Under the pieces are notes generated by a model, which saw only the letters and a list, made by a program, of their open reading frames with translations, did no database searches and was not told where the DNA came from. Shown one piece after another: positions 272 through 12,810 of a stretch of 13,617 nucleotides of DNA. Positions within the stretch are counted from its first letter, which is position 1, and each line of letters starts with the position of its first letter. Origin of the DNA: Stephanodiscus triporus (taxonomy: Eukaryota > Bacillariophyta > Thalassiosirophyceae > Thalassiosirales > Thalassiosiraceae); NCBI GenBank assembly GCA_036939755.1, contig JALLAZ010000589.1:1-13617 (forward strand), in the 5' to 3' direction. A program made the translations under genes and the position numbers.

Positions 272-1300
272 ATGGTGGCGGATGATGGGACGGCAACGAA
301 GACGATGATGGGCGGCGGCGGCGGCGGGGGTGGGGGTGGTGGTGGGCTCAACGCCATCCTCGTTGGCCGTCTCGGGATGATCCAAACGCCCCTGTCGCCC
401 GTCCTCAACAACGTCGTATCCACCCTGATCACGATAGCGTACGTCAAGTTCGCGCTCGAGGTCGGATCCTACGTCCGCGTCAAGTACGGCGTGACGGAAC
501 TGTCTCGAAAGTTCGTCCACTTGTGCGCGTGCTCGTTCGTGGTCTTCTGGCCCCTGTACGACGCCGGTCACTGGGGATGGCGACTGAACGTCACGGTCCC
601 GGCGGTCATGTCGTTGCGGCTGATTTACAAGGTGGGGAGATTTTTTTTGGGGGGGATTAGGGTTCTTCTTCATCGTTTGTTTTTTTCGCTTTTCGTACGC
701 GCACCCTTGCATAACTCTCTCCTCTCTACATAGCCGCCGACCAACCCTCTTATCCCTCCTATTATTTTACTTCGATTGTCACGCATCTTCTCTCCTCATC
801 GCGAAATAACAACAATCGCACATGAATAGGGAGCCATACTGAAGGATCCCGAGGACGAGGACGTGCGATCCATGTCGCGCACGTCGTCCCCGTCCGAGCT
901 GCTTTTCGGTCCGCTCCAAATGACCCTGATCATGTGCCGCATAGGCCTAACGAGGTTCATGACCGAGATCGGCGTCGTCGTCATGGCGTCGTTGGTCGGG
1001 GACGGCGTGGCGGCGATGGTCGGGATCGAGTACGGAAAGCGCGCGTACAGGATGCCGTTGGTTGGCGGGGACAAGTCGGTGGAGGGAACGATCGGGTGCG
1101 CGCTCGGGACGATGGGCGCGATACTTTTCTTCTCGTACATGTGCGGGGTCGAGGTGACGGGGGGGTACAGGATGCTCGTCGCGTACGGTATCGTGTCGGC
1201 GATCGTCGAGGCGACGGCGTTGCGCAATTTCGACAATCTGCTATTGGCCCTGGCGATGGAGATGGCGGTCAAGCATCACGCCAAGCTCGGACCGTCGTAA
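272..1300 (+). CDS. Phytol/dolichol kinase family protein (CTP-dependent polyprenol kinase), two exons
   Basis: Exons are 272-631 and 830-1300. The intron (632-829, 198 bases) has donor AAG|GTGGGG and acceptor AATAG|GGAG in phase 0, and a TAG at 827-829 rules out a longer second exon. The product is 276 aa. After a 12-Gly tract (residues 14-25) come hydrophobic segments. The family signature lies in exon 2: GDGVAAMVG (177-185), then the conserved Lys-Ser and Glu-Gly of DKSVEGT (201-207), and a late Asp-Asn (255-256). RKFVH (79-83) matches the conserved N-terminal region. Members such as VTE5, FOLK and SEC59 use CTP to phosphorylate phytol, farnesol or dolichol in membranes. I cannot tell which alcohol is used. 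The N-terminus lacks an obvious signal plus plastid transit peptide, which weakly argues against a plastid phytol kinase. The exon junction reads RLIYK|GAILKDP and is smooth, so the model is firm. The start is the first ATG of the frame. Confidence 0.85.
632..829 (+). other. Intron of the polyprenol kinase gene
   Basis: The intron begins GTGGGGAG and ends in a pyrimidine-rich stretch, then ATGAATAG. A nearer AG at 732-733 keeps the frame only until the TAG at 827-829, so the distal acceptor is required. It is the longest confidently placed intron in the window. It contains T and G homopolymers near its 5' end. Confidence 0.8.
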
Positions 1301-1916: not shown

Positions 1917-2100
1917 CTATGTCTTTTTGGCTCGAAAAGCACTCTGTCTTCGAAAAGATCTTCGAAAATTCATTGCATTGTGCCCCTCGTCATGGCCGTC
2001 TCTATCGCACATCTTGACAAAGTCTTTGATCTCATCGGCAACAACATCATCGCCAAAATGAACCAAACTTTGCCTCCGAAGATTCGTGACGCCCCGGAGC
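1917..2100 (-). other. Last exon of the MLO-like gene
   Basis: The intron is 2182-2101 (82 bases), donor AG|GTAAGG and acceptor CTAAAAG|GCTCC, in phase 2. Splicing replaces the immediate stop of the unspliced frame and adds 60 residues, including VHFGDDVVADEIKDFVKMC and a basic tail ending RAKKT. The added part continues the helix WCRTIAR without a break. The stop is TAG at 1919-1917. Confidence 0.7.
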
Positions 2101-5100
2101 CTTTTAGCAGATTACGAAATCAAATGATTAGCAAATATACGACAATACTCAATCATGACACTTCTCGCGGACAAAACCTTACCTAGCGATGGTGCGACAC
2201 CACACATTTGCCTCCGCACCGACGTGCGCTGTTATATTCGAACTATTATCGCCAGAATTTGAAACCTTGCTCTTGTGCTCCATTTCCTTCAGGTCCGCCA
2301 CGAAGCGCAAGAACAAAGTTTGGTGTTTGAAACGGATCTTCAATCTGTCTTCATTGACATGGCGCCAGCGCTTATTCATGGAGCTGACTTGATAACCTTC
2401 ACTCGATATGTTACCGCCCTGCCAATATTCCGGAAGATTGTCACTATTATTCACCTCAACATCTTCGCCGAAAATGTTGTTTTGGGTGATGGCAACTCTA
2501 TGCTCAATTTCCAAAAGTTCAATCTCATCGAGGTTAAATTGGCTCACAATCTTCCGCCCTCTGGCGATATCGCACAGGTGCATCCCCTTGCCTCCATTAA
2601 TGAAGTTGGTTATTGCATGACCTGGTGCTAAGCTGTCTACTGCGCCATCATCGAGAGCGTTAAAAAGAATCAGTTCATGGCTCGTGAGTGCTGCATCGAC
2701 AACCGTCCATTCGTCCAAAAACGGTAGCAATATCCTTTCGCATCGTCGCATTCTGCGAATCAAACGCGCCATCGGATATGAAAAATCATCGAAGGTTACA
2801 ATATCATCGGCACGGTGCTCTCTACTCGACATACAATAAGAGTGAATGCGATTGACTAGTTGTCGGGATGGATGATGAACTGCGCCCCCCTCTGAAATTT
2901 GGTCCTGGCTAGTTTGATTCTCAACCATGTTGCCATTGTCGGAGTTTTGATCATCTCTAACAGATGTTTCCAACTCCTTGCACTCGTCAATATTTTTCCT
3001 GGAGAATATCCCGAGCATGCATTGTAGCATCTCTCCTGAGAACAAACCAAACATTTCCGCTACCTCGCTATGGACGCCTATCGCTGTCAGCCAAAAAGTT
3101 CGCATTTTATCCAAATCAATACCATGGTGCCCATGATGATGTGACCACTTGTGTTTATCCTTCTGCTTCTCATTTTCGGCTTCATTTCCAAATAACGCAA
3201 CGATGCACGATGCAAAAAGAAATCGCATCGGGTACAACACAATGAGTGATGTAAAAGGCTCAATTTCACCGAGTCCTCCATATTTACGAGTGCCGAATTT
3301 CGGACAGCATGCAATGTCCTCCAGTGGTGAATCATCAATATAATCATTATTTGAAGATTCGGATGCCAACAGCCGGTGGCCAACCTCAGCTTCGTGGATC
3401 CCCTCCGCCACATCGCTGTTGTCTTGACAACACCGTTTCGTTTCGGCGATGAATAGCAGTAGCATGCATAGCAATATGATCATAAGACCGAACACAGCAG
3501 CAGAACAGGAGAACAATGATCTTCCCCTGCCTCTATCGTTCATAAATACTGCTAGGACCAACAACATCTCAATAATCATGAGGCAGTACCAGGACACCTC
3601 AATCCAAAAGAATTCTTCTAGAAGATGAATCCAAAGTTCTGTTTGATCTTTGAAAAGGCCTTCGGATACGTTGAACATTTCAATGCGCCTGTGCGGTAGA
3701 TCCCCCGGGGTGTTATTTGAGGGAGACTCACAAAAATAAAAATTCATTGGTAAGTAACACAAATACATGCTTACATTCTAAATGCGTAGGAAGGATGGCA
3801 CATGATAGCAACAAACATGATGAGCCCGTATAAATCCATGCGAAGGTATAAACACCAATTACAACATGCGACTCACGCTATGATCCAGAAGCATATCATC
3901 GGTCCACATACAAACGATATGGTATGGTACTGTGAACTCTGGAAGAATTTTATGAGATCGTTGCCTCTGACAAAGGCTTTCATCTTCTCTTGCCTTGTGG
4001 TAGTGGTCGCATCCGAAAGTATAGCTTCTGGTACATCATCAATATCACTTTCACCATCATCATCATCAAGAGCAAAGACATCCGGGGGCTGTTCTGATGA
4101 AAAGATTGATTTGCTTTCGAAAGAATCATTTGCTAAAATTGTGTCTCCGTTTTTTTTCTCTAGTGATTCCTTACTTTGAGATATTGTAAACGTGTTGGAC
4201 GCCGCTGCTGACACATGTGCAGGTCGCTGTCTATTTTTTAAGGGTATTTGATCTCGTGCAAACCCTGCGATTATATCGGCAGCAACTATTGGGCCTTTGT
4301 CTTCACTTGCCGCGCGTTTCGACGGTCTAAACGGTGGAATCTCTGGCAAATCCTGCAATGATTCCAGCAGCAATGATTAGGAATAAGAATCAGTGCAATA
4401 AAAATCATACTCTATATGGTAAACCGACCTTGACTGATAGCTGTGTGAGCTTTGACAGGGCAACGAGCTTCTCAGAACCCTTCTCAATTTGTAAATCAGT
4501 ATTTACTCCCGTCAACTCGTCCATGGCTAAGCCCGCAGACTGGGGCTTAGGTATCTTTGGTTCGTGCAACTCTAATGACAGATCTGAATGCGCATTGGAA
4601 AGGGGCTCGAAATTTTCACTGACAATATCCGTCTCCTTGATACTCCATGCAGCTGGGTGCGAGCGGCGATTGTGTGGTCCTCCCGACGACACACCTCGAT
4701 CCCCCCTCTCCCACCAGTCGCATCGGTCATCTAAAGGATCAGAATTCACGGATCTCATTAAAGCTACACCATCGGATACTGATTTTCTATTCTCGCGCGA
4801 ACGCATTGGTTTCAACTGTCTCCGGTGACTCACCGCTTCAGATTGCGCAGCAGCAGTTATCAGTTGTGATGCGCAATCATTTGGGGGGTGGGAGTCAGAG
4901 GAAACCAGATTTTTGTTACTAATGCTCCGCATGATGGAGGCCCTCATGGCATGAACCCCATCTGACAGCACCTTCGTCCTATTATGATGGATCTAGACGG
5001 AGTTGAACCAAAACAACGAGTATGAGCATTGTAATGTGTGTGATCGAAGCCCACTAAAAGAGAGTGAATTGAAATTAGCACAAGACTTGCCTTGGTTGTG

Positions 5101-7089
5101 CTTTTGAGGATCTGCCGAGGTTTCCTTGTTTCAGAGGCCGCCTTGACATTTTGAATCTCGATCTTTTTCCTCCGTCTTGCAATCTCTTCTTCGGCCTTCT
5201 TCTCTTCTTCAATTGACTCCTTCTTTCGAATCTCCTCGCTCAACCTCTGTTTTGCCACTGTCTCGTCAAGCCTATCAAAACCCGGTTGAAAATGGAAGGC
5301 GTCAAGATGGACAGTGGAACATAAAGTAAGTTGACGTCGCATTCGCACTCACATCTCTTTGTTTACAAGCTGACCCAAGCTGGTACATAGAGTATACCTA
5401 AATAAGGTATGAGATATCAGTAATGGGAAGATTCGATTGGATGTGTTCAAAGCATAATAAGATCGAACGCACCAGGGAAGGATATCCGAGATGAGCTTGA
5501 TAAAAATTGAATAGGAGAGAAATATTATTAGCAGGAGGAATTCCATGTGTGCGATTACTTCATAACCTTGCCAACTCTTCGAAAAAGAAAACACTCCGGC
5601 AAAACCAAGCGCATACCCAAACTGAAGGAACTGGGTGATCACAATAACGACGCGCGGATTTGAGCACCAGAATAAGTCAAGCTGATCGAAGGACGTAGTG
5701 GTGCCTTTATTCAATGCAGTGAACCTCCATGCTGCCGAAGAAATGAGATTGTTAGTGAATAATTCTACCCAGACGAAGAACTGGAAAAGACAAACTGACT
5801 CAACTTTTGGTGTTGTTTCGGTCATCATCAATAACATTATCGAGCTGCAGATGTTGTATCTTGTAGAAGATGTACCTCATTTTGAAATACAACACAGTCA
5901 TAATAGCCACGAAAACAACCATCAGCGACATGAAGGTGAGTACGAGGAATTTCTCGACTGTTGGTATTGTATGAGTGTTGTTCAAAATCATCCCCGCGAT
6001 GTAAAAAAGCAAATTGCCAATGGCCATGACGCTTATCCATGCCAGAGGGGAGATATGTACGAAGTCAACCAAGACACTTCTCAAAGACCGATCGAGGTAG
6101 GACGATACTTTGAAATTGGGTGGTAAATTGTTACACTCGATGAAGTGAACGCGTAATTCGTGGAAACGAATAATTGTCAATAGCTCATTCCTTCGTCGGT
6201 ATAGACGAGGATGTCGTATTCTCAATGCTAGATCAGACACCGAACTTTTGAAGGACTCCCGACGGGACGATGATTGGGAATCATTTCCACCAGTTGGCCA
6301 TGCACGTTCGGTGAGGCTGCCCATGTACTGGGGGTTAAGATGTTTTATTTTTCGTTCCAGGCGATCGAATTCCTTTCTGATGGCAACGTAGTGAGCGACC
6401 TCTATGTCTTCCGCCATGAGCCAAGTCTTGTCAGTTCTTCGCACCGTTAAGAGCCGAACTAAGCAGCTTTGGATTGCATTTAATATGGCTGTGTAGAACA
6501 GCATGAAATGGACCTGCGTAAAAGTGGCTGCCAAAAAAGTGCGGAGTGGTGTTGGGATAATTTTGAGAAAACATCGATACTTATGTTACGGGGGTCGCAC
6601 CTTCCCATTGATAGTTCAACCCCACCTCGTACGTGTGCAAAATATGAAGAAACAATTCACTGGCGGATGGAATGCATGGTGTGAGAAGAATAGCGGCAGA
6701 TGATGAAATAAGTAGTAACACAAATCATTAGTAAATCTCACACGATACCCAGAGTGGTTATCTCGCGATAAATCAACTCCAACACCGTCTGAAAAAATAC
6801 ATGCCCACGTGCTGCCACGTCGAGCTTCAAACACGATGCAAAACAAAATGGATAGTTCAGTCTGCAGAGTTGACGATTACAGAATTATTACAAAGATATA
6901 AAGGGGGAAACTTACACCATGTCGTATCACCTCGACCATGAGGAGGAGGGCCAACGTAAGGACGAAGACGCCGATGACGGCATGGTCGACATAATACTCC
7001 TCTTCCTCGGCGGATGCGAGAAGACGATGCATGGATTCGCCGTCGTGGAGCCCGGAATAGGTTGAGTTATGGTATTCGTAATCGTCCAT
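1917..7089 (-). CDS. MLO-like multi-pass membrane protein with long C-terminal extension and PH-like domain
   Basis: Exons on the minus strand: 7089-6916, 6824-6742, 6659-6601, 6527-5805, 5731-5473, 5397-5353, 5271-5091, 4992-4429, 4352-3877, 3688-2183 and 2100-1917. Phases agree throughout, giving 1418 codons (1417 aa). The start ATG at 7089 follows AACCAAACC. MLO-like features are a helix at about 37-54; LDVAARGHVFF then VLELIYREITTLGIVEL (59-88), like the MLO E-L-LG-IS block; VDFVHISPLAW (259-269); LDLFWCSNPR (364-373), like LFWF-RP; and YTLCTSLGQLV (434-444) after helix 7. A charged, likely coiled-coil stretch (449-490) and a low-complexity tail (509-830) follow. Further helices lie at about 838-855, 882-904, 913-935 and 999-1021, then a His-rich loop (1036-1044) and a PH-like region (about 1174-1370). 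Plant MLO proteins are calmodulin-binding membrane proteins linked to calcium signalling. Function here is inferred. Weak points are the donor at 5804, the GC donor at 5090 and the 3688 exon start, where 3769 is an alternative. Confidence 0.72.
2183..3688 (-). other. Exon 10 of the MLO-like gene: extra membrane helices and start of PH-like region
   Basis: This is the largest exon and is open for 501 codons (residues 856-1356). Three hydrophobic segments lie at about 882-904, 913-935 and 999-1021. Between the second and third are a predicted extracellular HRLLAS motif and two Cys pairs. A His-rich run (WSHHHGHHG) follows helix 11. From about residue 1174 the pattern of short beta-type stretches and a final helix containing Trp resembles a PH fold. 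The exon ends GCT AG|GTAAGG, a strong donor two codons before the in-frame stop that would otherwise end the reading frame. It could instead be a separate gene starting at ATG 3768, but that upstream part is AT-rich and intron-like. Confidence 0.6.
5091..5271 (-). other. Exon 7 of the MLO-like gene: charged putative coiled coil
   Basis: This exon follows the last MLO-type helix and codes for residues 449-508. The sequence is dense in Glu, Lys and Arg with few helix breakers until a Lys-Pro-Arg near the end. It is predicted cytosolic, where plant MLO proteins carry the calmodulin-binding helix. The exon seems to end AAG|GCAAGT, a non-canonical GC donor in otherwise perfect donor context. The next exon then starts at 4992 (CGTCTAG|ATC) in phase 0. 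Confidence 0.6.
6825..6915 (-). other. Intron 1 of the MLO-like gene
   Basis: The donor is GGT|GTAAGT and the acceptor TTTGAAG|CTCGAC, in phase 0. The AAG acceptor is unusual, but it is needed. It adds LDVAARGHVFFQ, which continues the MLO-type juxtamembrane segment, whereas a nearer-consensus TTTCAG 39 bases further in would delete it. Size is 91 bases. Confidence 0.75.
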
Positions 7090-7644: not shown

Positions 7645-10301
7645 ATGCTCGCCGCCTCCAATTCGCGTCTGGCGGCCCTCGGGCGCATCGCCTCGCGGCA
7701 GTCGGCGTCGTTGTCGGCGTCGTCGTCGTCCCAGCTCCGCGCGACGATCGGGACCGCCGCCGTCGCCTCGGACGCCTCGAGCGACGGACGACGCGCGGAT
7801 GCCGGCCTCGGCGCGGCCGCCATCGCCGCCCTGGCGGCGGCGATGGCGACCGCGGGAGGCATAGCGTCGTTCGGGGGGAGGAATTCGGGGGGAGGGGAGA
7901 AGGCGGGGTGCATGGCGATAACGGCAGTCGTGGGGAAGGGAAATTTCGATGCCAGGTAAAAAAAAAAAACTCGCACTGATCGCGATTGGGGTTGATATTG
8001 GCAAATTCCACCCGGTCTGAAAGTGAATGCATCGTCTTCTTTCAATCTCTGGCGTTTTTTTTTTCCTTTTCCTTTCTTCTCCTGAAAACTCTCTTTCACT
8101 CTTTCTCACACACACCCGCCGATCCCTCCATTGTTTGCAAGGAAATATCTACTGGATGGGCTCGATAAGATCAAATCCAGAGGATACGACGGCGCGGGAT
8201 TCGCCACGATGGAGCCTGCGAGGGGCGACATGGTAAGAAGGAACTTTCTCGACCGACAAGGCGATGGAGATGATGTGTTCGTCGACATCCTCTTGCCCCT
8301 CCCTGAATCGCATCATTTTCTCACATTCATTGCTTTCGTTTTTTGTCCCACTCCAGGAAATCGTCAAGAAATCCAGTGTCGACGACAAGCTCGATCCCAT
8401 CCGCATGGTCCGCGAGTCGTCCCGTTCGAGCCTGGGTCATTCCATCGGCATCGCGCACACCCGATGGGCCACCCAGGGGAGCATCACCGATCGCAACGCG
8501 CATCCCCACCTCGACGCCACCGGCAAGGTCGCGGTCGTGCACAACGGTAGCGTCTTCAACAAGCAGGACCTGCGCAAGGAATTGAAGGCGTTGGGGTACA
8601 CCTTCGAGGGACAGACCGACACCGAGGTTATAGCGAAGCTCATCGGACACTACTACAAGGAGGGAGCGGTGGACATACGCGACGCCACCAGCAGGGCCAT
8701 GAAGAGGTGCGTCGGTGCCTCGGGTGTGGTGGTCATGTGCTCCGACAAGCCGGACGAGCTCGTAGTATTCTGCAACGGCTCGCCGCTGTACATCGGCGTC
8801 GGCGAGAACGGCTCCTTCGTGGCCAGCAATCCCGCGGCGTTCAAAGATCAGTCGAGGAATTACATCAAGCTGGACGACAGGGAGGTGGCGACAATCACAG
8901 TCGATGGTAGGAATCTGGACCTGACGAGGCAGGTCAGCGCCGATGTGAAGGACGACGTTGGGCCGGCGAGTCCCGCCCCGTATCCTCACTGGTTCATCAA
9001 GGAGTGAGTATTGTCGGTCATAATTTGTAATTTTGGTGCAGTCCGGCACTCTCGTTCTGGTCTTTCGCTCATTCCATTCCACCACCATCCTCGCTATTCT
9101 CGTCCAGGGTCATGGAGCAACCGCAGGCCATCGGCAGGGCACTGGGCTTCGGTGGACGCCTCTTCCTCGATACCGCCATGCTCGGGGGTCTACAGGACAA
9201 GTACGAGAAACTCAAGAATATCGAGAATCTCCTCGTCGTTGGATGCGGGAGCAGTTTCAACGCCGCGAGCTACGGCACCAAGCTCCTGAGGCACACGGGG
9301 GTCTTCACGAATGTCGCGGCCATAGACGCCGACAGCACCGAGGAGTCCGATTTTCGGGTCCACAACGATCCATCGAGGTCGGGACTCGTCGTGGTGTCGC
9401 AGTCCGGCGAGACGAAGGAGCTAGTCGACGTGGTCAGGCTTGCGCAGCAACGCGATGTCCCCGTGATCAGCATTATCAACACCGTCGGGAGCACGATTGC
9501 GAACTTGACGAAATGTGGCGTTTACACGTTCGCCGGACCGGAGCATTCTGCGTCGAGCACGAAATCGTTCACGACGCAGGTCGTGTGCCTGGCCTTGATG
9601 GCTTTGTGGTTCAGGCAGACAAAGGCTAAAGAGCATGGATGGGGGACGTCTAATGAACAAACCTCCCTTGCAGAAGCATTGCAGAGGTTGCCGATAACGT
9701 TCGGCATGCTCATGAGGACGCAGAGTAGCTGTAAGGTTGCGGCGAAGAAACTCGTTGGCAAAGAGCACTGCTTCGTGCTGGGAAAAGGTGAGTCCATGGT
9801 TGAAACTGCGAGCGATTCGCACTTTACATTCTATTACGTTTCTTGTTGATGGACATATTTTTTTTCTATTTTGTAGGGTTCGGGGAACCCATCGCGATGG
9901 AGGGAGCACTCAAGTTGAAAGAGGTTGGCTATCTTCACGCAGAGGGCTACAGCGGTGGGGCGCTCAAGCATGGTCCATTCGCTTTGATCGAGGATGACAA
10001 CAATGGCAAGCAGGGAGCCACTCCCATCATCATGCTCGTCCTGGATGATAACCACGCCCACCACATGCGCACGGCCTGCGAGGAAGTCAAGGCAAGAGGC
10101 GCCGAGCTGATCATAATCACGGACAAAAAGAGGCTGGCGGAGGGACTGGATGACAATCCGATTATAATCCCCTCCAATGGTCCGCTCACTGCACTTGGCG
10201 CTATGGTGCCCTTGCAGATGATTGCATATGAGTTGGCAATGCTGAAGGATAACAATCCGGATGCGCCAAGACACTTGCGCAAAATATACGCGGACAAATA
10301 A
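7645..10301 (+). CDS. Glutamine--fructose-6-phosphate aminotransferase (isomerizing), five exons
   Basis: Exons: 7645-7955, 8142-8232, 8357-9003, 9108-9787 and 9877-10301. Donors are GTAAAA, GTAAGA, GTGAGT and GTGAGT, and all phases agree. The product is 717 aa. It converts fructose-6-phosphate and glutamine to glucosamine-6-phosphate, the first committed step to UDP-GlcNAc. The class II glutaminase domain has RGYDGAG (117-123), HTRWATQG (168-175), NG (197-198) and the conserved Asp of DTE (222-224). The first SIS domain has [10 protein letters not shown] (393-402) and SQSGET (447-452). The second SIS domain has EGALKLKE (585-592), KHGP (607-610) and the C-terminal Lys 712, equivalents of the isomerase residues. 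Without the 88-residue extension, length (629) is close to bacterial GlmS (about 609). Residues 1-40 are Arg/Ser/Ala-rich without acids, as in mitochondrial presequences, and an Ala-rich hydrophobic stretch follows (55-75). Oddly, the expected Cys-Gly-Ile reads Cys89-Met90-Ala91-Ile92. ATG 7645 is the first in-frame ATG. Confidence 0.93.
7956..8141 (+). other. Intron 1 of the GFAT gene
   Basis: The donor is AG|GTAAAA and the acceptor TTGCAAG|GAAAT, in phase 2. It restores ...[12 protein letters not shown], the standard GFAT continuation. The intron holds an A tract near the donor and a long T/C-rich stretch. Size is 186 bases. The other GFAT introns are 8233-8356 (124), 9004-9107 (104) and 9788-9876 (89). 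Confidence 0.88.
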
Positions 10302-11154: not shown

Positions 11155-12174
11155 TCATTTTCGCGCCCAGTTCTTGTACACCCAGGCTGCAATTTTATCA
11201 TCTTCATCGGACAAATCTGCGGCCATGGCAGAAGGGAGGAGGGAGTGTGATTGGCAACCGATGGCATGACTGATATTCGTTTGCGGATCGCACACGCCAA
11301 TTTTCTCGCTCCCTCTGGCGATGGCACCTGCAGTCTCGGCATTGCGGCCCTTGGGGGGCTGGTGGGGGCGTTCCACTTCTCGTGAGGCGGTTACGAGAGA
11401 CTTCGCGTCATGCCTATGGCAAACACCGCCACTAACGGCTCCATTTGCGCACTTCTCGTGGCTGCGGCGTTTTACTCTCATGCCATGCCTATGACAAACT
11501 CCTCCCTTTCGGGCTTGGTTGGAGCATCCCTCTTGGCTGCAGCGTTTCACACTCGCACCATGTGTGACACACGTTCCTCCCTTAATGGCTCCATTGGCGC
11601 AACCGTCATGGCTGCAGCGTCTTACCTTCACCATCGCTCCGTGCTTTATACAAACACCTGCCTTTTGGGCATACTTTGTGCACCCCTCGCGGCTGCAGCA
11701 TTTCACCTTCGCGCCATGCCTCATACAAACTCCTCGACTTCGGGCTCGGTTGACGCACCCCTCATGGCTGCAGCGTTTCACCATCGCGCCATGGGCGATG
11801 CAAACTCCGCCTATTAAGGCTCCATTAGCGCATCCCTCGTGGCTACAGAGTTTCACCTTCGGCTTCGCGCCATGCCTACGACAAACTCCTCCCTTTCTGG
11901 CTTTGTTGAGGCATCCCTCGTGGCTGCAGCGTTTCACCTTCGCGCCATGCCTGATGCAAACTCCGCCTATAACGACTCCATTAGTGCATCCCTCATAGCT
12001 GCAGCGTTTCACCTTCGCCTTCGAGCCATGCCCATGACAAACTCCTCCATTATAGGCTTGGTTGACGCATCCCTCGTGGCTGCAGCGATTGTCCTCCGCG
12101 ACGTGAGCGATACAAACTCCTCCTCGAATGGCTATATTGGCGCAACTGTCGTGGCTGCGGCGTGTTTTGCCCAT
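11155..12174 (-). CDS. Tandem Cys/His-repeat (WRKY19-like) zinc-binding protein
   Basis: This intronless frame of 339 aa starts at ATG 12174 in good context (GCAACCATGG). The frame is open further upstream but has no earlier ATG. From residue 4 to about 245 it is an array of ten repeats of 23-25 residues. The consensus is K-R-C-S-H-E-G-C-x-N-x-A-x-x-G-G-V-C-x-x-H-G-A-K, giving a Cys-Cys-Cys-His set that suggests one zinc per repeat. The first and last repeats have Arg in place of the first Cys. Such repeats occur at the N-terminus of plant WRKY19-type proteins and in large diatom families annotated by that similarity; no WRKY domain is present here. After the array comes a polar linker and an acidic-aromatic C-terminus (LSDEDDKIAAWVYKNWARK). 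The role is unproven. Nucleic-acid or protein binding is inferred from the repeat type and high Lys/Arg content. Confidence 0.85.
   Translation of the reverse strand: MGKTRRSHDSCANIAIRGGVCIAHVAEDNRCSHEGCVNQAYNGGVCHGHGSKAKVKRCSYEGCTNGVVIGGVCIRHGAKVKRCSHEGCLNKARKGGVCRRHGAKPKVKLCSHEGCANGALIGGVCIAHGAMVKRCSHEGCVNRARSRGVCMRHGAKVKCCSREGCTKYAQKAGVCIKHGAMVKVRRCSHDGCANGAIKGGTCVTHGASVKRCSQEGCSNQARKGGVCHRHGMRVKRRSHEKCANGAVSGGVCHRHDAKSLVTASREVERPHQPPKGRNAETAGAIARGSEKIGVCDPQTNISHAIGCQSHSLLPSAMAADLSDEDDKIAAWVYKNWARK
11365..12165 (-). repeat. Coding tandem repeat, ten units of 69-75 bases
   Basis: The DNA repeats with the protein. On the plus strand each unit contains a variant of CATCCCTCGTGGCTGCAGCG and GCGCCATGCC. 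Units with and without an extra Lys-Val/Lys-Pro pair give 75- or 69-base periods, partly alternating. This architecture favours unequal exchange and copy-number change between alleles. Confidence 0.8.
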
Positions 12175-12810
12175 GGTTGCCAAATTATTCGTGGAGTTGA
12201 CGATGCAAAGGTCACGCGCCCCGCCCTTATTGCCCCCAACAACCGATGAGCCGCAATGAGAGAAGAGATGGACCGGACTCCCTGCGTTGATTTCTCATGA
12301 TTGAAAACGATGAAGAATCGCGCATGCTCGATTCAAATTTGCTATTGTCACATGATAAAATATATCAAAAACACGCCGAATCGCACGTCGCAATTGCTCG
12401 ATTCAAATTTGCCGTTGTCACATGGTATTTGAGGGTCAGGTAGAGATAGATCGGGCGATGGGGTCTCTACGCTCTGCTGCGTTCAATCGTTCGTATTGTT
12501 GTGCTGGAGTTTTTTATTTTTTTACCAATTTTCGGCGGTTAAGAAGAAAGCACTTGCGAGCTGGAGAAAAGGAGAGTGGAAACTCTTCAAAACAGGACGA
12601 GCAAACAGAGGGGCGGGCGCGAACACACAATGTGAGAGCGGCCTCTGGAAGACACTGGATTTGGGGGGGGGAGTTTGAGGGCGCCCCCCAAAAATGGTTT
12701 TGGCGCGACTCCTTATTTTCTTGTGCGATCGCCAATATCAAGAAGGGAAATGTCTAAATCGAGAAACCAACGCATGACCCGACTTCTAGCGTCCTGCCGA
12801 CAGCAGGTCA
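12175..12810. other. Gene-free upstream region of the Cys/His-repeat gene
   Basis: This stretch should hold the promoter of the minus-strand repeat-protein gene. It contains the 70-base-spaced direct repeat listed separately, T-rich and G-rich runs (such as 12663-12671) and no supportable gene. Short frames here lack domains. Confidence 0.5.
12325..12424. repeat. Two-copy direct repeat, copies 70 bases apart
   Basis: TGCTCGATTCAAATTTGC followed after two variable bases by TTGTCACATG occurs at 12325-12354 and again at 12395-12424. Twenty-eight of 30 positions are identical and the offset is exactly 70. It lies about 150-250 bases upstream of the Cys/His-repeat gene start. It could be a duplicated promoter element or a small tandem duplication. 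Confidence 0.75.

What the first reader, a model, noticed from the sequence alone, without database searches (positions are those of the whole stretch)
1917..7089. MLO-like seven-helix protein fused to four more helices and a PH-like region
The minus strand encodes, in about 11 phase-compatible exons, an MLO-type module (ITTLGIVEL, HISPLAW, LDLFWCSNPR and the segment after helix 7). Some 950 more residues follow: a charged coil, a disordered tail, four helices and a PH-like region. Plant MLO proteins stop at about 500-600 residues after helix 7. If it is one protein, it has 11 helices with the N-terminus outside and the PH-like region in the cytosol, so a calcium-linked membrane module would be joined to a possible lipid-binding one.
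Basis: partly seen in the sequence, partly recalled or inferred. Interest (0 to 1): 0.78.

Follow-up and report, generated by a model that had tools for sequence, protein, structure and literature searches.

The report
Diatom MLO-like protein with PH tail
This diatom gene most likely makes one long membrane protein: an MLO-like seven-helix part joined to a second four-helix part and a PH-type domain, an arrangement found in many diatoms, although what it does has not been tested.

The parts
1917..7089 (-). whole gene, 11 exons, 1417-aa protein, stop codon included
   Evidence: model; relatives; junctions
5250..7002 (-). MLO-like seven-helix module, residues 30-455; helices mapped to residues 36-63, 67-96, 102-145, 266-290, 293-331, 373-395, 409-439; longest cytosolic loop between helices 3 and 4
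   Evidence: model of relative P0076 mapped to the window protein; Pfam Mlo in 32 of 65 relatives; coordinates
3936..5249 (-). cytosolic linker, residues 456-835: charged stretch after helix 7, then mostly low-conservation sequence
4945..4980 (-). linker repeat copy 1, residues 513-524, serine 518; fits the strict form but has valine in place of the first S/T
4756..4791 (-). linker repeat copy 2, residues 576-587, serine 581; has the K-S-x-S-D-G-V core but asparagine in place of the first R, so fits the loose form only
3193..3935 (-). second membrane bundle, residues 836-1020: helices 8-11 (836-863, 878-907, 910-938, 998-1020); interrupted by intron 9 (3876-3689)
3304..3432 (-). predicted outer loop between helices 10 and 11 with near-invariant cysteines 941, 942, 982, 983
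2016..2781 (-). PH-fold domain, residues 1158-1385, with a near-invariant basic first strand (R1166, R1169, R1170, R1173)
4993..5090 (-). intron 7, read as GC-AG; the least certain junction

Best explanation
This is one gene for a single 11-helix membrane protein of a diatom family. Its N-half is a divergent MLO-like seven-helix module with the N-terminus outside. A cytosolic linker with a conserved serine-containing repeat joins it to a four-helix membrane bundle, whose outer loop is probably held by disulfides, followed by a cytosolic PH-fold domain. Most likely working (inferred): the MLO-like half is a regulated membrane signalling unit, possibly Ca2+-permeable as reported for some plant MLOs; the linker repeats are sites for basophilic (AGC/CaMK-type) kinases or a docking partner; the PH domain reads an inner-leaflet or protein signal, so that both membrane parts are switched together. 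Shown here: the gene model, conservation of the whole architecture, and the repeat. Predicted by model: helices and PH fold. Inferred: topology in the cell, transport, phosphorylation and the ligand of the PH domain.
Against: The window protein has no Pfam Mlo match (E<=1 whole; E<=10 for the N-half, where 2 of 6 members match). The PH domain lacks the usual phosphoinositide motif (0 of 63) and has no Pfam PH match; Foldseek gives nothing at E<=0.001 for it (best 2.0e-3). P0148, a 710-aa MMETSP protein labelled type:complete, begins in the linker and could be a free-standing C-half. P0072, a 712-aa Fistulifera protein, stops just before helix 8. The public model of this very gene is 295 aa. 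The loop between helices 2 and 3, predicted outside, is as basic as the least basic inner loop (13.0 against 12.6%), and only 10 of 20 relatives checked have a glycosylation sequon before helix 1. The window's two repeat copies are each imperfect. No RNA data were available for this gene.
Confidence: 0.65

Rival explanations
1. Two neighbouring genes: an MLO-like gene ending in the linker and a separate four-helix/PH gene starting near 3768, fused only by the reader's splicing.
For: The public annotation stops the window gene at 295 aa (P0106). P0148 (710 aa, MMETSP, type:complete) starts in the linker. P0072 stops before helix 8. Intron 9 (3876-3689, 188 bases) is the longest; the other nine are 73-98 bases.
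Against: 58 of 72 sequences have both halves in one protein, including MMETSP-labelled P0016 and P0019. The genome's own paralogue is annotated as one 1351-aa protein. P0106 skips exons 2-3, whose residues most compared relatives keep, and runs into intron 4.
Confidence: 0.06
2. The protein is a tether or scaffold rather than a channel: the MLO-like half does not transport, and the PH domain and linker repeats gather partners at a membrane contact or secretory site.
For: PH domain conservation includes invariant W, V, D, T and E residues besides the basic strand, as for a protein-binding surface. PH domains and charged linkers are common in scaffolds (general knowledge). No tested transport exists for any member known to me.
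Against: Conservation is highest in the N-half (mean pairwise identity 0.52, against 0.42 for the second bundle and 0.49 for the PH part), which suggests a working membrane core.
Confidence: 0.3
3. Helices 8-11 are a voltage-sensor-type domain, so the protein couples voltage to the MLO-like half and the PH domain.
For: Four-helix bundle with both ends predicted inside. Helix 11 has basic residues at 1007 in 81% and 1010 in 98% of 58 sequences, and 49 of 58 have two basic residues three apart in this stretch. 42 of 58 have three or more arginines in the helix 11 columns.
Confidence: 0.05

Closest known systems
MLO family of land plants (Pfam PF03094)
   Same: Seven predicted helices, N-terminus predicted outside, long cytosolic loop between helices 3 and 4, cytosolic C-terminal tail, profile match in relatives.
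   Different: Here about 960 more residues follow: linker repeats, four helices, PH domain. No cysteines in the predicted outer loops of the MLO-like half; plant MLOs are recalled to have four conserved ones. The window protein alone is not found by the profile.
MLO-like proteins and MLO fusions of algae and other protists (Kusch et al. 2016, doi 10.1093/gbe/evw036)
   Same: Recalled, not seen: the abstract reports MLO-like proteins with diverse topologies in Chromalveolata and several fusion events.
   Different: Not held in the library, so whether this diatom architecture is among those fusions could not be checked.
PH domain of Bruton's tyrosine kinase and other PH domains
   Different: Longer loops, near-invariant basic first strand, no [KR]-x-R in strand 2 in 63 sequences, no sequence match in PDB up to E 10.

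Membership tests
Mlo (PF03094) | Profile score above the curated cut-off of 24 bits | tested here: inconclusive
   Of 6 relatives scanned, P0001 (32.4 bits) and P0011 (35.6) pass, P0006 (22.8) fails, P0014, P0016 and P0036 do not match; 32 of 65 relatives at E<=0.01. The window protein itself: no match.
Mlo (PF03094) | Seven membrane helices with the longest cytosolic loop between helices 3 and 4 | tested here: met
   Model of relative P0076 (pLDDT 80.0, pTM 0.76) mapped to the window protein. A prediction.
Mlo, land-plant type | Four conserved cysteines in outer loops (recalled feature) | tested here: not met
   Cysteines of the N-half lie at 127, 237, 369, 437, none in a predicted outer loop. 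So it is filed as MLO-like, not as a canonical plant MLO.
Mlo, land-plant type | Calmodulin-binding stretch after helix 7 | not testable with these tools
   A charged stretch follows helix 7; binding was not tested.
Mlo, land-plant type | Ca2+-permeable channel activity (reported for some plant MLOs, PMC9810639, passages seen) | not testable with these tools
   Needs expression and recording.
PH domain | PH fold: seven strands and a C-terminal helix | tested here: met
PH domain, phosphoinositide-binding type | K-x(n)-[KR]-x-R motif across strands 1 and 2 (recalled) | tested here: not met
   Strand 1 is basic, but [KR]-x-R occurs in residues 1177-1192 in 0 of 63 sequences; 46% have a single basic residue at 1181.
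PH domain (Pfam) | Pfam PH profile match | tested here: not met
   None in 6 members at E<=10 nor in the whole window protein at E<=1. The claim rests on fold, not on sequence.
Voltage-sensor domain (Ion_trans, PF00520) | Three or more basic residues every third position in the last helix | tested here: not met
   0 of 58; two in register in 49 of 58.
Voltage-sensor domain (Ion_trans, PF00520) | Pfam profile match | tested here: not met
   None in 6 members at E<=10.

The most novel reading that the evidence does not exclude
A diatom-wide two-part membrane signalling protein in which an MLO-type calcium conductance is controlled in one chain by a kinase-target linker with a repeated motif not known to me from any description (R-x-K-[ST]-x-S-D-G-V-x-x-M) and by a non-canonical PH domain set on a second membrane bundle: a calcium-to-lipid or calcium-to-partner switch that land plants, by contrast, would have to build from separate proteins.
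Probability: 0.25. Interest if true: 0.72.

Novelty: new variant of a known kind. Interest (0 to 1): 0.56.

Why it matters
MLO proteins are known mainly from plants, where they bear on mildew susceptibility and pollen-tube calcium. A diatom family that keeps an MLO-like module fixed to a second membrane bundle, a kinase-type repeat and a PH domain offers a Rosetta-stone clue to what MLO works with, and two single-chain targets (the repeat and the PH domain) that could be mutated in tractable diatoms. It also shows that the public model of this gene stops after a fifth of its length.

Tried and rejected

Many of these hits look like exon-wise or truncated gene calls.

Literature, eight searches. 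'MLO' with 'diatom': 14 papers, 13 listed, none about diatom MLO proteins by title and start of abstract. MLO with pleckstrin homology, domain architecture, stramenopile: 19 papers, 17 listed; MLO with Rosetta stone, fusion, chromalveolata: 7 listed; none to the point by title. Broader ones listed 20 of 57, 20 of 78, 10 of 29, 10 of 17 and 1. Kusch 2016 is not held. PMC9229925: passages seen.

Full report
Gene model. I rebuilt the coding sequence from the minus strand. With the start codon at 7089 and 11 exons ending at 1917 it reads 1417 residues without an inner stop. Nine of 10 introns are GT-AG. Intron 7 reads GC-AG; by inspection of the DNA a GT-AG alternative (exon end at 5082) exists and would add three residues. 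Pairwise alignment with nine relatives, not all covering every junction, supports junctions 1, 2, 5, 6, 8, 9 and 10; junctions 3 and 4 are less clear and junction 7 lies in unconserved sequence. Several relatives carry one more residue at junction 9, and P0001 lacks the residues around junction 2.

One protein. A search of about 5.8 billion proteins gave 71 relatives at E<=0.001, with 7993 candidates scored. P0002 of Cyclostephanos and P0005 of Stephanodiscus cover 98% of the query. By block occupancy 58 of 72 aligned sequences (window included) hold residues 215-450, 840-1010 and 1140-1380; of the other 14, nine lack the PH part and five lack half or more of the scored N-half block. Of the 58, 22 also hold most of residues 30-130; the others are short at the N-terminus, which I take for gene calls that start late. 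P0016 and P0019, whose names carry MMETSP transcriptome labels, align from residue 35 to 1395 and from 22 to 1401. Distances of the N-half and the PH part correlate at 0.87, 0 of 1000 permutations as high; shared species history would give the same, so this only agrees with fusion. Against: P0148 (MMETSP, type:complete, 710 aa) starts in the linker, and P0072 stops before helix 8.

Where it is from. P0106, annotated in Stephanodiscus triporus as ACHAW5_006397 (295 aa), matches the window at 100% over its residues 59-295; its first 58 residues equal exon 1 by inspection. It skips exons 2 and 3 and ends in intron 4, so the public model is truncated. P0005, from the same species, is the paralogue on contig C636 (99.5% over a 201-residue exon) and is annotated as one 1351-aa protein with both halves.

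The N-half. Pfam Mlo matches P0001 (32.4 bits) and P0011 (35.6 bits), over the cut-off of 24; P0006 scores 22.8; P0014, P0016 and P0036 do not match. Among 65 N-half relatives 32 match at E<=0.01, best 1.2e-10. Database records carry the Mlo label in 8 of 71. The window protein alone gives no match. A model of P0076 (pLDDT 80.0, pTM 0.76), mapped to the window, shows seven membrane helices with the long loop between helices 3 and 4. Fold comparison gave no usable match; see Tried and rejected. I therefore call it MLO-like.

The linker. After helix 7 comes a charged stretch and then mostly low-conservation sequence in which a short repeat stands out. The loose form S-[DEN]-[GSN]-[VI]-x-x-[MLIW] occurs 2.72 times per linker (158 in all) against 0.023 in shuffles, in 57 of 58 linkers; before its serine, R stands at -5 in 129, K at -3 in 138, and S or T at -2 in 113 of the 158. 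The strict form [RK]-x-[KR]-[STAV]-x-S-[DE]-G-[VI]-x-x-M occurs 120 times in 58 linkers (three linkers have none), never elsewhere in these proteins, and in none of the block shuffles. The window has one strict copy (513-524) and one loose copy (576-587). The resemblance to basophilic kinase sites is recalled knowledge and inference. In the own genome an exact DNA pattern for K-S-x-S-D-G-V-x-x-M has two hits, this gene and its paralogue. A DDVP or DDIP stretch before helix 8 is present in 38 of 58.

How it probably works. Some plant MLOs mediate Ca2+ influx when co-expressed with a kinase-pathway component (PMC9810639, passages seen). By analogy the MLO-like half may be the conducting or sensing core, the linker repeat a kinase or docking switch, and the PH domain a reader of lipid or partner at the inner leaflet. 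None of these activities is shown here. A scaffold without transport is the main rival.

Novelty. MLO-like proteins outside plants and MLO fusions are recalled to be reported by Kusch et al. 2016, which is not held. In the held library I found, by title and start of abstract, no paper on diatom MLO or, by title, on MLO with PH domains. I rate it a new variant of a known kind.

Noticed in passing
   Followed up: partly
L012 (G000:C555:4500-8500), bases 1591-2063: A broken partial copy: pieces matching residues 894-1006 and 1362-1412 lie next to each other, with stops. P0144 (ACHAW5_002863, partial) looks like another decayed copy.
   Followed up: partly
L013 (G000:C761:4800-6800), bases 972-1040: A 23-residue stretch 83% like residues 600-622 of the linker, alone; source unclear.
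   Followed up: no
window 7089-1917, public model ACHAW5_006397: The public annotation ends this gene at 295 aa by skipping exons 2-3 and running into intron 4.
   Followed up: yes
window 8237-10301 (+): Glutamine amidotransferase plus two SIS domains in three open frames: a glutamine-fructose-6-phosphate transaminase-type gene in several exons.
   Followed up: partly
window 830-1300 (+): Weak CTP_transf_1 match (17.6 bits, cut-off 24), perhaps a phytol or dolichol kinase-type gene together with 266-733, which had no match.
   Followed up: partly
window 11155-12294 (-): WRKY19-type zinc finger repeats, seven matched stretches, in one open frame (E 4.5e-48).
   Followed up: partly
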